The position numbers were made by a program, and so were the translations under genes. 64,000 nt of DNA from Actinoallomurus spadix (GTDB taxonomy: Bacteria; Actinomycetota; Actinomycetes; Streptosporangiales; Streptosporangiaceae), in contig NZ_JAMXMX010000037.1 in the NCBI RefSeq assembly GCF_024055725.1, positions 1 to 64,000 of the forward strand, given 5' to 3'. The notes beneath the pieces were generated by a model that made no database searches, was not told where the DNA came from, and saw nothing but the letters and a program-made list of their open reading frames with translations. Below, in pieces: positions 28,402 through 33,298 of this stretch (position 1 is its first letter; every line of letters starts with the position of its first letter).

Positions 28402-29295
28402 ATGACGGACATCGCGACCATCCGGGCGAACGGCCTGACGTTCGGCTACCTGGAGGCGGGCAGCGGGCCGCTGGCGCTGTGCCTGCACGGTTTCCCCGAC
28501 TCGGCGTACACCTGGCGGCACCTGCTCCCGGCGCTGGCCGGCGCGGGCTACCACGCGGTGGCGCCGTTCCTGCGCGGTTACGCGCCCACGGATGTGCCGG
28601 GCGACGGCGCGTACCAGGTCGGCGCGCTGGCGGCCGACGCGAACGCCCTGCACGAGGCGTTCGGCGGGGACGACGGCGCGGTGCTGCTCGGGCACGACTG
28701 GGGTGCCGCCGCGACGTACGCCGCCGTCGCGCACGCTCCGGAACGGTGGCGGCGGGCGGTGGCGATGGCGTTCCCGCCGCTCGGGGCCGTTCTGTCGGGG
28801 TTCTTCGACTACGCGCAGCTGAAGCGGTCCTTCTACATCTTCCTGTTCCAGACGCCGCTGGCCGAGACGGCGGTGCTGATGGACGACCTGGCCTTCCTGG
28901 ACGGCCTGTGGGCGGACTGGTCGCCGGGGTACGACGCCGCCCGTGACGTCGCGCACGCCAAGGACTGCCTGCGCGACCCGGTGAACCTGGCCGCGGCCGT
29001 CGGCTACTACCGAGCGATGCTCGACCCGTCCCTGCACCGTCCGGCGTACGCGGCCGAGCAGGAGGCGGCCGGGCGCGTCGGCGAGCGGCCGGTCCTGTAT
29101 CTGCACGGCGCGGCCGACGGTTGCCTGGACGCCGGGCTCGCCGGTGGCGCCGAGGGTCACCTGCCGGCCGGTTCGCGGTCGGGGACCGTCGCGGACGCGG
29201 GACACTTCCTGCACCTGGAGCGGCCGGAGGAGGTCGGCCGGCTGGTCCTGGAGTGGCTGGCCGTGGATCGGCCCTCGCGAACCGGTGCGGGGTAA
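28402..29295 (+). CDS. alpha/beta hydrolase, epoxide hydrolase / haloalkane dehalogenase-like
   Basis: 297 residues with an alpha/beta-hydrolase core. The HGFPDS oxyanion motif precedes the nucleophile elbow GHDWGAA, where the nucleophile is aspartate rather than serine, as in epoxide hydrolases and haloalkane dehalogenases. LHGAADGCLD should supply the acid and DAGHFLHLE the histidine. It probably hydrolyses an epoxide or a halide in the cytosol. ATG 28402 was chosen over the upstream GTG because of the -10 box just before it. It is transcribed just upstream of the P450 (55 bp gap), so an epoxide formed by the P450 is one possible substrate; that is inference. Confidence 0.83.
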   Translation: MTDIATIRANGLTFGYLEAGSGPLALCLHGFPDSAYTWRHLLPALAGAGYHAVAPFLRGYAPTDVPGDGAYQVGALAADANALHEAFGGDDGAVLLGHDWGAAATYAAVAHAPERWRRAVAMAFPPLGAVLSGFFDYAQLKRSFYIFLFQTPLAETAVLMDDLAFLDGLWADWSPGYDAARDVAHAKDCLRDPVNLAAAVGYYRAMLDPSLHRPAYAAEQEAAGRVGERPVLYLHGAADGCLDAGLAGGAEGHLPAGSRSGTVADAGHFLHLERPEEVGRLVLEWLAVDRPSRTGAG

Positions 29296-29350
29296 GTGGT
29301 CACTTTGGCAGAATGGAGCAGAATCGCGTTCTAGTTCGAGGAGGAACCGC

Positions 29351-30598
29351 GTGGAGAAGACCCGGCCCGACGGGATCGATCTGACCGAGTGGGACTTCTG
29401 GGCGCGCCCGCTCGACGAGCGTCACGCGGCGTTCCGCACGCTGCGAGGGCTGCCGGAGCCGGCGTTCTTCCGGGAGCCGGAACTGTCCTTCGTGCCGATG
29501 GGCCCCGGGTACTACGCGCTGGTCACCCACGCGGACGTCGTCGAGGCCTCGCGCCGGCCGGCCGACTTCTGCTCCGGGCGCGGCGCGATCAACATCAACG
29601 ACATGCCGGCCGACCTCAATGAGTACTTCGGCTCGATGATCAATATGGACGACCCTCGGCACGCCAAGATCCGCCGGATCGTCTCGCGCGCCTTCTCGCC
29701 GCGCATGATCCAGCGGTTCGAGGACCAGGTGCAGGCCGTCGCCGAGCAGGTCGTCGAGGAGGTCCTCGCCAAGGGCGGCGGCGACTTCGTCACCGACGTC
29801 GCCGCCCGCCTCCCGCTGAAGATCATTTGTGACCTGATGGGGATCGACGAGGCGCACTACAAGACCGTCTTCGACAACTCCAACATCATCCTCGCCGGCG
29901 CGGACCCCGAGTTCGTCTCCGATGACGCCGACCAGGTCGCGCTGCAGCTCCTCCAGGCGGGGCAGACGCTGAAGGACCTCGTCGAGGAGCTCGGCCGCAG
30001 GCGCCGCGAGGAGCCGACCGGCGACCTCACCTCCGCCCTGGTGAACGCCAACATCGACGGCGAGTCGCTGACCGACCAGGAACTCGGCTCGTTCTTCATC
30101 CTCCTGGTCGTCGCCGGCAACGAGACCACCCGCAACGCCATCGCCCACGGCCTGCACCTGCTCACCGAGAACCCCGGCCAGCGCGAGCTGCTGGCCTCGG
30201 ACTTCGAGCGGTACATCCCGGGCACGGTGGAGGAGATCGTGCGGTACGCCTCGCCGGTCATCTGGATGCGGCGCACCGCGACCCGCGACACCGAGCTGAA
30301 CGGCCGCGACGTCAAGGCCGGCGACAAGCTGATCCTCTACTACTGGTCGGCCAACCGGGACGAGGCCGTCTTCACCGACCCGGAGGTCTTCGACATCACC
30401 CGGGATCCGAACCCGCACGTCGGTTTCGGCGGCCCCGGCCCGCACTTCTGCCTCGGCGCCCACCTGGCCCGCCGGGAGATCAGCGTGATGTTCCGCGAGC
30501 TGTTCCGCCGGGCTCCGGGCATCCGCGCCACGGGCGAGCCCGACCGCCTGCTGTCCAACTTCATCAACGGCATCAAGCACCTGCCCTACACCGTCTGA
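29351..30598 (+). CDS. cytochrome P450
   Basis: 415 residues. The I-helix oxygen-activation motif is AGNETTRNA. The K-helix has EEIVR and the haem loop FGGPGPHFCLGAHLAR carries the axial cysteine C367. The overall character (INMDDPRHAKIRRIVSRAF; the GxGPHFCLG loop) resembles bacterial soluble P450s such as the CYP124/125/142 and linalool hydroxylase groups that oxidise terpenoid, steroid or fatty chains. The start is GTG at 29351 behind GGAGG. No ferredoxin or reductase gene is next to it, so electrons must come from elsewhere. A palindromic terminator follows. Confidence 0.93.
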   Translation: MEKTRPDGIDLTEWDFWARPLDERHAAFRTLRGLPEPAFFREPELSFVPMGPGYYALVTHADVVEASRRPADFCSGRGAININDMPADLNEYFGSMINMDDPRHAKIRRIVSRAFSPRMIQRFEDQVQAVAEQVVEEVLAKGGGDFVTDVAARLPLKIICDLMGIDEAHYKTVFDNSNIILAGADPEFVSDDADQVALQLLQAGQTLKDLVEELGRRRREEPTGDLTSALVNANIDGESLTDQELGSFFILLVVAGNETTRNAIAHGLHLLTENPGQRELLASDFERYIPGTVEEIVRYASPVIWMRRTATRDTELNGRDVKAGDKLILYYWSANRDEAVFTDPEVFDITRDPNPHVGFGGPGPHFCLGAHLARREISVMFRELFRRAPGIRATGEPDRLLSNFINGIKHLPYTV

Positions 30599-30625
30599 CG
30601 CGCGGCTCCGCGCGGATCCCGCGGC

Positions 30626-30651
30626 GGACCCGGGCCGGCCGGCCCGGGTCC
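30626..30651 (+). terminator. palindromic terminator after the P450
   Basis: A perfect 26-bp palindrome made of GGACCCGGGCC, GGCC and the complement, 27 bp after the P450 stop. Confidence 0.7.
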
Positions 30652-30683
30652 GCTGTCGAAGCCCGGTGTCCTTGCGTCTGCGA

Positions 30684-30695
30684 TAGTCTTGGTAT
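30684..30695 (+). promoter_or_regulatory. -10 box of the leuS leader transcript
   Basis: TAGTCT (30684-30689) is six bases before the ATG of the leader peptide at 30696. The leader would thus be translated from the very 5' end of the transcript. No convincing -35 is visible. Confidence 0.5.
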
Positions 30696-30731
30696 ATGCG
30701 ATCTCGGCTGCTCCTCAGCCGGCCGCGTTGA
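30696..30731 (+). CDS. leucine leader peptide upstream of leuS
   Basis: An 11-codon ORF, MRSRLLLSRPR, with three consecutive leucine codons (CTG CTC CTC) at codons 5-7 and a TGA at 30729. It has no other plausible role. The run of leucine codons upstream of the leucyl-tRNA synthetase gene is the hallmark of ribosome-mediated attenuation, in which stalling for lack of charged leucyl-tRNA changes the folding of the downstream RNA. The peptide itself is probably inert. A GC hairpin with a short T-run (30752-30777) follows, and leuS starts 101 bases after the leader stop. Confidence 0.65.
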   Translation: MRSRLLLSRPR

Positions 30732-30777
30732 CCCGAGCCGTCGACGCGGCAGCCCCTCCTGCGTGAGGGGCGTTCTC
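30705..30777 (+). promoter_or_regulatory. candidate leucine attenuator of leuS
   Basis: Three hairpins can be drawn. The first is CGGCTG (30705-30710) with CAGCCG (30716-30721), spanning the leucine codons. The second is GCCGCGT (30722-30728) with ACGCGGC (30744-30750). The third is GCCCCTC (30752-30758) with GAGGGGC (30765-30771), followed by GTTCTC, a weak intrinsic terminator. GCTCCTC (30710-30716) can also pair with the 3' arm of the third hairpin through one G-U pair. Which pairing is the antiterminator is not settled by eye. Confidence 0.55.
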
Positions 30778-30832
30778 ATGCCAGGGGCACGGTCCACCGC
30801 CAGCCGAAGCCGTGCGAATCAGACGAGGAACC

Positions 30833-33298
30833 ATGACAGGCGCCGACGAGAACTACGACCCACGGACGATCCAGGACAAATGGCAGGCCCGGTGGGAGGA
30901 GCTCAAGCCCTTCGCTGCGAGTGAGGACCCCGCCGACGAGCGGCCCCGCAAGTACGCGCTGGACATGTTCCCGTACCCCTCCGGCGACCTCCACATGGGT
31001 CACGCCGAGGCGTTCGCGATCGGCGACGTGGTCGCGCGGTACTGGCTCCAGAAGGGCTACAACGTCCTGCACCCCATCGGCTGGGACTCCTTCGGCCTGC
31101 CCGCCGAGAACGCCGCGATCAAGCGCGACTCCCACCCCGCCGAGTGGACCTACACCAACATCGACACCCAGGCGGAGTCGTTCAAGCGCTACGCGATCTC
31201 CTTCGACTGGTCGCGCCGGCTGCACACCTCCGACCCGGAGTACTACCGCTGGAACCAGTGGCTGTTCCTGCGCTTCTACGAGCGCGGCCTGGCGTACCGC
31301 AAGGGCGGCCAGGTCAACTGGTGCCCGAAGGATCAGACCGTGCTGGCCAACGAGCAGGTCGTCAACGGGCAGTGCGAGCGGTGCGGCGCGGTGGTCGAGA
31401 AGCGCGTCCTGACCCAGTGGTACTTCAAGATCACTGAGTACGCCGACCGGCTGCTGGCCGACATGGCGGAGCTGGAGTGGCCCGAGCGGGTGCTGCTGAT
31501 GCAGCGCAACTGGATCGGCCGCTCCGAGGGCGCCGACGTGACCTTCCAGATCGAGGGGCGCGCCGAGCCGATCACCGTCTACACCACCCGGCCGGACACC
31601 CTGTACGGCGCGACGTTCTTCGTCGTCGCCGCCGACGCCGCGCTGGCCGACGAGATCTGCGCGCCGGAGCAGCGCGCGGAGTTCGAGGCCTACCGTGACG
31701 CGGTCCGCCGCGAGACCGAGATCGAGCGGCTGGCCACCGACAAGGAGAAGACCGGCGTCTTCCTGGGGCGCTACGCCGTCAACCCGGTGAACGGCGAGCG
31801 CATCCCCGTGTGGGCCTCCGACTACGTCCTGGCCGAGTACGGCCACGGCGCGATCATGGCGGTGCCCGCGCACGACCAGCGCGACCTGGACTTCGCCCGC
31901 AGGTTCGGCCTGCCGGTCCGTGTCGTCGTGCACACCGGCGAGGCGGACCCCGGCGAGACCGGGGTCGCCACGCCCGGAGAGGGCGAGCTGGTCAACTCCG
32001 GGCCCCTGGACGGCCTGACCAAGTCCGCCGCCATCCCCCGGATCGTCGAGGTCCTGGAGGAGAAGGGCCTGGGCAAGGCAGCGGTGAACTACCGGCTGCG
32101 CGACTGGCTGATCTCCCGGCAGCGGTTCTGGGGCACGCCGATCCCGATCATTCACTGTGACGCGTGCGGCGAGGTCCCGGTCCCGGACGACCAGCTGCCC
32201 GTGCGCCTGCCGGACGACCTGCGCGGCGCCGACCTGGCCCCGACGGGCGTGTCGCCGCGGGCGGCCGCCGAGAACTGGGTGAACGTCGCGTGCCCCAAGT
32301 GCGGTGGCCCGGCCAAGCGGGACACCGACACGATGGACACCTTCGTCGACTCCTCCTGGTACTTCCTGCGGTACTGCTCGCCGGGGTACGAGGGCGGCCC
32401 GTTCGACGCCGAGAAGGTGCGCCGGTGGATGCCGGCCGACCAGTACACCGGCGGTGTCGAGCACGCCATCCTGCACCTGCTGTACGCCCGGTTCTTCACC
32501 AAGGTGCTGTACGACATGGGCCTGGTCGACTTCACCGAGCCCTTCAAGCGGCTGGTCAACCAGGGCCAGGTGATCCTGAACGGCTCGGCGATGTCCAAGA
32601 CGACCGGCAACCTGGTGGACCTGGGCGAGCAGATCGCCGAGTACGGCGTCGACGCCGTGCGGCTGACGATGCTGTTCTCCGGGCCGCCGGAGGACGACAT
32701 CGACTGGGCGGACGTGTCGCCGTCGGGGTCGGTGAAGTTCCTGGCGCGGGTCTTCCGCGTGGCCGCCGACGTGACGTCCGAGCCGGGCGCCGACCCGGCG
32801 ACCGGCGACGTCGCGCTGCGCAAGGTGACGCACCGGACGATCGACGAGGTCACCCGGCTGGTCGAGGCGCACCGCTACAACGTGGCGATCGCGCGGATGA
32901 TGGAGCTGACCTCCGCGGCCCGTAAGGCCATCGACGCGGGTGCGGGCGCCGGTGACCCGGCGGTCCGCGAGGCCGCCGAGACCCTGGCGGTCATGCTGTC
33001 GCTGGTCGCGCCGTACACCGCCGAGGAGATGTGGGAGCGGCTGGGCCGTACGGCGCCGGCGGTCCGGGCGGGCTGGCCGGCCGCCGACCCGGCGCTGCTG
33101 GTCCAGGAGTCGGTGACCTGTGTGGTTCAGGTGGCGGGCAAGGTCCGCGACCGCCTGGAGGTGTCCCCGGACATCGCCGAGAGCGACCTGGAGCGCCTGG
33201 CGCTGGACTCCGAGAAGGTCCGGGCGGCCCTGGGCGACCGGGGCGTCCGCAAGGTCGTCGTCCGCGCTCCGAAGATCGTGAACATCGTGCCCGCCTGA
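30833..33298 (+). CDS. leuS: leucyl-tRNA synthetase
   Basis: 821 residues, complete. The class I HIGH motif appears as HMGH in [15 protein letters not shown]. The editing domain contains the [12 protein letters not shown] threonine-rich region and [15 protein letters not shown]. The zinc-ribbon-like CDACGEVP is present, and the KMSKS loop reads SAMSKTTGN. The C-terminal anticodon-binding and tRNA-interacting domain ends in VNIVPA. It charges tRNA-Leu. ATG 30833 follows GAGGAA; GTG 30812 would add seven residues. Expression is probably controlled by the leucine leader upstream. The stop codon lies in the first copy of a 20-bp triplication. Confidence 0.97.

What the first reader, a model, noticed from the sequence alone, without database searches (positions are those of the whole stretch)
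30684..30832. Leucine leader peptide and candidate attenuator before leuS
Directly visible: TAGTCT -10, then an 11-codon ORF with three adjacent leucine codons, stop at 30731, a 7-bp GC hairpin with a short T-run, and leuS 101 bases further on. Leader-peptide attenuation is established for amino-acid biosynthesis operons; here the controlled gene would be the leucyl-tRNA synthetase. The leader appears to be translated from a leaderless mRNA. I could not decide by eye which pairing is the antiterminator.
Basis: partly seen in the sequence, partly recalled or inferred. Interest (0 to 1): 0.75.

Follow-up and report, generated by a model that had tools for sequence, protein, structure and literature searches.

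The report
Leucine-sensing leader before leuS
A tiny leucine-rich reading frame and two back-to-back RNA hairpins sit in front of the leucyl-tRNA synthetase gene and very probably switch it on when leucine runs short; the element is already known from Streptomyces, but how its hairpins switch is less obvious than the textbook model.

Summary
In detail: TAGTCT, an 11-codon ORF (MRSRLLLSRPR), a terminator-like hairpin and leuS lie where stated. It is not chance: 59 of 80 leuS upstream regions (79 relatives and the window) carry the signature, against 1 of 2000 shuffles. In a class-wide sample 45 of 100 regions, in 19 of 34 families, carry the element. Hairpins B (30722-30750) and C (30752-30771, terminator) covary: 14 of 18 pairs show compensatory changes. 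The kind is known: leuS attenuators were predicted in Streptomyces in 2005, and RNA-seq reported leaderless LeuL2 (MRAVRLLLSEPR) before S. lividans leuS. What I add is anatomy. The third leucine codon lies 8 nt before B in 43 of 44 sequences, C follows B within two bases and the stop codon lies in B in 102 of 102, and I found no conserved pairing that excludes C. B is the antiterminator candidate; that it brings the stalled ribosome next to C is inference. A similar layout recurs before ilvB and cimA. New member of a known kind, with a mechanistic puzzle.

The parts
30684..30689 (+). -10 element TAGTCT (TANNNT), preceded by TGCG at 30679-30682
   Evidence: in 47 representatives, which were chosen for TANNNT, T at -12 78%, A at -11 80%, T at -7 82%; not chosen for: TGCG at -17 to -14, 57-76% per base, and no conserved -35
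30696..30731 (+). leader ORF MRSRLLLSRPR, probably leaderless, stop TGA 30729-30731
   Evidence: a leader in 63 of 80 loci
30708..30716 (+). three control leucine codons CTG CTC CTC
   Evidence: of 44 aligned sequences the last two are Leu in 44 and the first in 36 (leaders were chosen for LL); CTT and CTC strongly enriched over leuS coding usage
30722..30750 (+). hairpin B, arms 30722-30732 and 30740-30750: ribosome-gated hairpin, antiterminator candidate; its 5' arm contains the leader stop codon
   Evidence: 9 of 11 pairs with compensatory change; stop codon in B's 5' arm (66) or loop (36) of 102
30752..30771 (+). hairpin C, arms 30752-30758 and 30765-30771: intrinsic terminator stem, one base after B
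   Evidence: 5 of 7 pairs with compensatory change
30772..30777 (+). U-tract GTTCTC, weak in this species
30833..33298 (+). leuS, leucyl-tRNA synthetase, the controlled gene
   Evidence: TIGR00396 match over the family cut-off; relatives

Best explanation
This is a ribosome-mediated, leucine-responsive transcription attenuator of leuS. Transcription starts at or beside the leader's ATG (inferred from the -10), and a ribosome translates the 11-codon leader. With charged tRNA-Leu it runs to the stop codon, which lies inside hairpin B, so B cannot form; C forms and transcription ends. When leucyl-tRNA is scarce the ribosome stalls on the first leucine codon with its front edge at the foot of B. 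B then forms whole, and read-through into leuS follows. Shown here by sequence: leader, control codons, both hairpins, spacing. Inferred: the direction of the response, and how B blocks C. The favoured step is proximity: B loops out the intervening RNA and brings the stalled ribosome to within a base or two of the terminator's 5' arm, leaving no room for C to close.
For: Leader conserved far beyond chance, in 45 of 100 class-wide regions and 19 of 34 families. B and C covary: 14 of 18 pairs compensatory, 0 of 500 shuffles as high on any of five measures, slid pairings far lower (44 sequences). The third Leu codon is 8 nt from B in 43 of 44 sequences, while the B loop runs from 6 to 33 nt. B thus starts 14 nt after the first Leu codon of an LLL run, about where the front edge of a ribosome on that codon lies. 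The stop codon is in B in 102 of 102, and a ribosome there leaves at least 7 nt before C. Control codons are CTT 51, CTC 45, CTG 35, TTG 5 in 47 leaders, against CTG 4246, CTC 485, TTG 55, CTT 39, CTA 6 in the leuS genes of 80 relatives read in frame. S. lividans RNA-seq: leaderless LeuL2 before leuS. In M. tuberculosis ilvB1, replacing the four control codons abolished induction (PMC13236596, passages).
Against: C is predicted stable in every ribosome position: median P 0.83 with a Leu stall (below 0.5 in 6 of 102) and 0.78 at the stop (below 0.5 in 18 of 102). The folding energies thus show no switch, and what difference there is goes the wrong way. The U-tract in this species is weak. The ribosome edges and truncated RNAs are crude. 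No expression data exist for this organism in what I saw. In S. coelicolor, replacing candidate control codons before ilvB had no effect (as cited in PMC1262725), so a leader of this look need not act by codon sensing. More than half of the class sample (55 of 100 regions) showed no such element.
Confidence: 0.8

Rival explanations
1. Attenuation by true base competition: B steals bases from the foot of C, as in the boundary-trinucleotide switch of C. glutamicum ilvBNC, or a third pairing like trp 2:3 exists that I missed.
For: B and C abut in nearly all leaders, as in C. glutamicum, where the hairpins share GCC (PMC11857589). 10 of 102 share three boundary bases, and in 16 of 102 B could take two or more bases of C across a small bulge. 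trpS of this genome has the overlapping repeats expected of the classical type (my reading).
Against: Shared boundary bases are 0 in 76 of 102 sequences including the window. No third helix occurs at fixed positions in 30% or more of 102 (which left out the two loops and the leader before the leucine codons). In 47 representatives no region upstream of C pairs with C's 5' arm in 20% or more. RNAalifold finds only B and C.
Confidence: 0.3
2. The leucine codons themselves pair with the 3' arm of C (GAGGGG) as an antiterminator when not covered by a ribosome.
For: Such helices are more frequent than after shuffling within regions (39 of 47 against 22.5). With a stricter count 29 of 47 have one, more than when the leucine codons are redrawn from the leaders' own pool (mean 16, highest of 40 draws 22) or from gene usage (mean 4.5).
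Against: Swapping partners between species gives the same rate (mean 28.7 of 47), so there is no sign of coevolution; the codon order that favours it is shared by the leaders for whatever reason. All nine family-f16 (Streptomyces-type) leaders lack it. A ribosome on the leucine codons would prevent it, giving the wrong sign.
Confidence: 0.06
3. The leader mainly affects leuS translation or RNA stability and C is an incidental hairpin, at least in this species where the U-tract is poor.
For: GTTCTC after C in the window and in L080; no terminator called in the window stretch.
Against: The 102 leaders have a median of 6 T in 9 after C; C's base pairs covary; C ends 61 nt before the leuS start, away from its ribosome site.
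Confidence: 0.1

Closest known systems
Streptomyces leuS attenuator: Seliverstov et al. 2005 (PMC1262725, passages) and leuL2 of S. lividans TK24 (PMC8079986, passages)
   Same: Same gene, same place, leader with LLL, leaderless in S. lividans. MRAVRLLLSEPR is reproduced letter for letter in 8 of the 9 family-f16 leaders. Hairpin plus U-run follow.
   Different: The window peptide is MRSRLLLSRPR and its U-tract is poorer. The 2005 paper calls it a classical attenuator with an antiterminator; I found no pairing that excludes the terminator (its figure 4 was not available to me).
Attenuator of C. glutamicum ilvBNC, three-hairpin model (PMC11857589, abstract, passages and section 3.2) and the ilvB-II motif (PMC10272879, passages)
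   Same: Branched-chain leader, start codon at the transcript start in C. glutamicum, antiterminator and terminator hairpins side by side.
   Different: There the two hairpins are said to share a boundary trinucleotide, or the terminator's right arm to pair with the P1 loop. In leuS 76 of 102 share no base, and pairing of the B loop with C's 3' arm is not enriched (16 of 47 against 17.5).
trp-type classical attenuators; trpS of this genome (L210)
   Same: Leader with control codons a short way after a -10-like TANNNT, hairpins, terminator-like repeat.
   Different: In trpS the Trp codons lie at the first hairpin and the repeats overlap so that a 2:3 pairing would exclude 3:4 (my reading of the sequence). 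In leuS the stalled ribosome leaves B intact and no such overlap was found.

Membership tests
Actinobacterial leuS leader attenuator (leuL2 type) | short ORF with a leucine run directly upstream of leuS | tested here: met
Actinobacterial leuS leader attenuator (leuL2 type) | leaderless transcript of the leader | tested here: inconclusive
   -10 to ATG distance of 12 nt, as in 89 of 102 leaders (set chosen for 11-13); no 5' end mapped in this organism
Actinobacterial leuS leader attenuator (leuL2 type) | terminator hairpin with U-run between leader and leuS | tested here: inconclusive
   hairpin C covaries; U-run good in most relatives (median 6 T of 9) but weak here
Classical trp-type attenuator | antiterminator that shares bases with, and excludes, the terminator | tested here: not met
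   no conserved competing pairing found, 0 shared bases in the window; the energy test is not decisive because the trpS control did not switch either
Classical trp-type attenuator | response to limitation of the cognate amino acid | not testable with these tools
   needs expression data
C. glutamicum ilvBNC boundary-trinucleotide attenuator | three bases shared by the feet of both hairpins | tested here: not met
   0 shared in 76 of 102, 1 in 12, 2 in 4, 3 in 10; window 0
T-box and other Rfam families | match at the family's gathering score | tested here: not met
   0 matches in the window; with the lax threshold on 30601-30860 only a hammerhead match on the other strand far below its gathering score (E 0.6)

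The most novel reading that the evidence does not exclude
Branched-chain attenuators of Actinobacteria (leuS, ilvB, cimA) share one design in which no RNA pairing competes with the terminator. The hairpin set 8 nt after the last control codon acts as a shortcut that places the stalled ribosome at the foot of the terminator and blocks it by bulk, so the ribosome itself is the antiterminator.
Probability: 0.35. Interest if true: 0.65.

Novelty: new member of a known kind. Interest (0 to 1): 0.42.

Why it matters
Control of an aminoacyl-tRNA synthetase by reading its own codons is a direct feedback loop. The known Streptomyces case here becomes an element spread over much of the class, with a tight geometry. 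The near-invariant spacing and the missing antiterminator make an old muddle testable: how leader peptides of branched-chain genes work in Streptomyces and relatives, where codon mutants gave paradoxical results (as cited in PMC1262725). Two spacer insertions would go far to decide between base competition and ribosome proximity.

Tried and rejected
Hairpin A (30705-30710/30716-30721) over the leucine codons looked like a trp 1:2 hairpin in the window, but no such pairing is conserved at fixed positions. Pairing of leucine codons with C's 3' arm was enriched over shuffles and over redrawn leader codons, but not over partner swaps between species. B stealing bases from C was tested and not supported in most leaders. 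Rfam gave nothing. The trp control did not show a minimum-energy switch either: truncated folds of trpS kept the terminator in all three states, so the energy calculation cannot by itself exclude a kinetic switch, and I rely on the helix surveys instead.

Dropped rows and limits. L116 was dropped from the 103 leaders because its automatic hairpin assignment failed, leaving 102. Three of the 47 representatives (L061, L066, L144, long B loops) were left out of alignment A1, leaving 44. In one search C was only sought within 8 nt after B. Leaders were chosen for LL and TANNNT, so those two features are conserved by construction; spacing, hairpins and stop position are not. Ten of 100 class loci could not be oriented by the motif search; the covariance model recovered four of them (L087, L095, L120, L122). 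Five of the 100 regions were cut short by contig ends (L102, L104, L111, L114, L168), L111 too short to judge. L104 is a truncated model hit, and L163 has no leucine run as I read it. My first count of leuS leucine codons read some loci out of frame; one search replaces it. In the ilvB and cimA scan the automatic choice of ORF is sometimes wrong and B was only sought ending within 6 nt of C.

Full report
What is there. The window (an 8.0-Mb assembly) carries leuS at 30833-33298. Among the 80 fetched relatives the nearest LeuS, 92% identical over the best segment, is that of Actinoallomurus purpureus (L080). Ahead of leuS lie TAGTCT (30684-30689), ATG six bases further on, the ORF MRSRLLLSRPR with stop at 30731, hairpin B (30722-30732/30740-30750, 10 of 11 pairs complementary by the repeat finder, all 11 counting one G-U), one spacer base, hairpin C (30752-30758/30765-30771) and GTTCTC. 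The upstream gene reads as a cytochrome P450 ending at 30598 (my reading).

Is it more than chance. Of 80 upstream regions of 400 nt (79 relatives and the window), 59 hold a TANNNT placed 11-13 nt before a short ORF with LLL, and 64 one with LL. Dinucleotide shuffles give 1 and 9 of 2000. A leader was found in 63 of the 80 fetched loci. The 17 misses include all Nocardiopsis, Streptomonospora, Microbispora and Planotetraspora loci of the set and one locus with only 3 nt upstream; the covariance model picked up weak, altered copies in L031, L077 and L079. In a class-wide sample of 100 leuS regions (chosen by me from the 158 genomes to spread over families), 39 have the leader by signature and 6 more by model, in 19 of 34 families; 55 showed none. 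Family f16 carries MRAVRLLLSEPR in 8 of 9 loci, identical to the LeuL2 peptide of S. lividans, so I take it for the Streptomyces family. The leuS-trained model hits 28 of 296 genomes drawn across the phylum, not all at leuS: of 12 places inspected, by my reading of the translations, 3 lie before leuS, 4 before ilvB, 1 before leuA, 1 before a leuC-like gene, 1 before cimA and 2 were not identified.

Structure. In 44 aligned representatives, 95.6% of cells pair, 14 of 18 pairs show compensatory change, and none of 500 shuffles reaches any of the five measures; sliding the partners by 1-3 columns drops pairing to 36-52%. RNAalifold, left free, returns only pairs of the same two helices. Over 102 sequences the helix survey finds no third pairing at fixed positions in 30% or more (loops and the first leader codons not covered). 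In 47 representatives, counting any register, no region upstream of C pairs with C's 5' arm in 20% or more.

Geometry. The first base of the third leucine codon lies 8 nt from B in 43 of 44 sequences and 9 in one; loop B varies from 6 to 33 nt (4 to 56 over 102 with maximal helices). With maximal helices instead of aligned columns, B starts 14 nt after the first leucine of an LLL run in 45 of 84 leaders, 13 in 28, 12 in 7, 11 in 3 and 15 in 1, because B is often extended by a pair or two. C follows maximal B with no gap in 86 of 103, with one base in 14, two in 2 and five in one (the misassigned L116). The stop codon lies in B's 5' arm in 66 and in its loop in 36 of 102, and a ribosome there leaves 7 nt or more before C. 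A 26-nt footprint centred on the regulatory codon, as used in PMC13236596, would end about 14 nt after the first leucine codon, at the foot of B. The leader therefore looks built so that a stall on the first leucine codon just permits B, and a ribosome at the stop forbids it.

Codons. The 47 representative leaders use CTT 51, CTC 45, CTG 35 and TTG 5. leuS genes of the 80 relatives use CTG 4246, CTC 485, TTG 55, CTT 39 and CTA 6. Rare CTY codons are thus strongly preferred at the sensor.

What does not fit the textbook. In trp-type attenuation the antiterminator shares bases with the terminator. Here B can take a base from C by contiguous extension in only 3 of 102; counting both directions, 76 of 102 share none and 10 share three; the window shares none. 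Across a 1-2 nt bulge B could take two or more bases in 16 of 102. C is predicted to form whether the ribosome is on leucine or at the stop, if anything slightly less at the stop. Energies are a blunt tool: the trpS leader of the same genome, whose repeats overlap in the classical way, also kept its terminator in my truncated folds. The best supported statement is that B is gated by the ribosome and C terminates; how B, or the ribosome beside it, defeats C is open. I favour proximity because both spacings are nearly fixed and the loop is not.

Wider pattern. The leuS-trained model also hit the leader of cimA in this genome (MRNSLVIIGWRAGT, G000:C35:30363-30478, gene at 28772-30304). ilvB of this genome has MNRNLILVLGRRAS with the last control codon 8 nt before a hairpin that lies one base from a terminator (my reading). 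In 40 ilvB regions, of 88 genomes searched, 38 gave a leader with two hairpins, 36 with at least three branched-chain codons; the gap is 0-1 in 33 of these 36 and the spacing 7-9 in 21 of 36. In 20 cimA regions, of 59 genomes searched, 13 gave one, 8 with at least three such codons; the gap is 0 in 8 of 8 and the spacing 8-9 in 6 of 8 (with the limits named under tried and rejected). A TANNNT at leaderless distance was seen in only 5 of the 36 and 2 of the 8, so leaderless starts are not shown for these. The stem cores differ between gene families (mostly GCCGCG for leuS, GCGCGC and variants for ilvB and cimA), so the layout rather than the sequence is what they share.

Prior art. PMC1262725 (passages) predicts classical attenuators before leuS in S. 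avermitilis and S. coelicolor. PMC8079986 (passages) reports leaderless leuL2. PMC11857589 (abstract, passages, section 3.2) and PMC10272879 (passages) treat ilvB in Corynebacterium; PMC13236596 (passages) treats ilvB1 in M. tuberculosis. In the listings of searches (searches showed 20 of 72 and 20 of 36 papers) I recognised no mutational study of leuS attenuation and no description of the fixed spacing; one search listed one paper for citramalate synthase with attenuation and leader peptide, a methanogen study seen only in the listing. These cover only the held open-access library.

Verdict. It is a new member of a known kind; the unusual point is the lack of a visible competing antiterminator in a very rigid layout.

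Noticed in passing
G000:C35:30363-30478 (- strand), locus L186: Leader peptide MRNSLVIIGWRAGT with the same two-hairpin layout directly before cimA (citramalate synthase); one search found no paper on cimA attenuation in Actinobacteria in the held library.
   Followed up: partly
L199 (G000:C8, upstream of ilvB at 153402): Leader MNRNLILVLGRRAS with two nearly abutting hairpins and TTTTTT before ilvB.
   Followed up: partly
L207 and L210 (own genome): Trp leaders MRTQSTQWWWRR (TAGCCT 13 nt before the start) before a trpE-like gene below the family cut-off and MRGSLHSSSWWAA (TACAAT 13 nt before) before a trpS; trpS shows classical overlapping repeats by my reading.
   Followed up: partly
window 30679-30689 and relatives: TGCGNTANNNT at the leader promoter in most of 47 representatives with no conserved -35.
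   Followed up: no
window 30624-30653: Perfect 15-bp inverted repeat without loop, 25 nt after the upstream P450-like gene, with partly similar places on contigs C15 and C20; perhaps a terminator without U-run.
   Followed up: no
L031, L079 (Planotetraspora), L077 (Sinomonas): Weak copies of the leuS leader in which terminator C is kept while the leader ORF or B has changed, by my reading.
   Followed up: no
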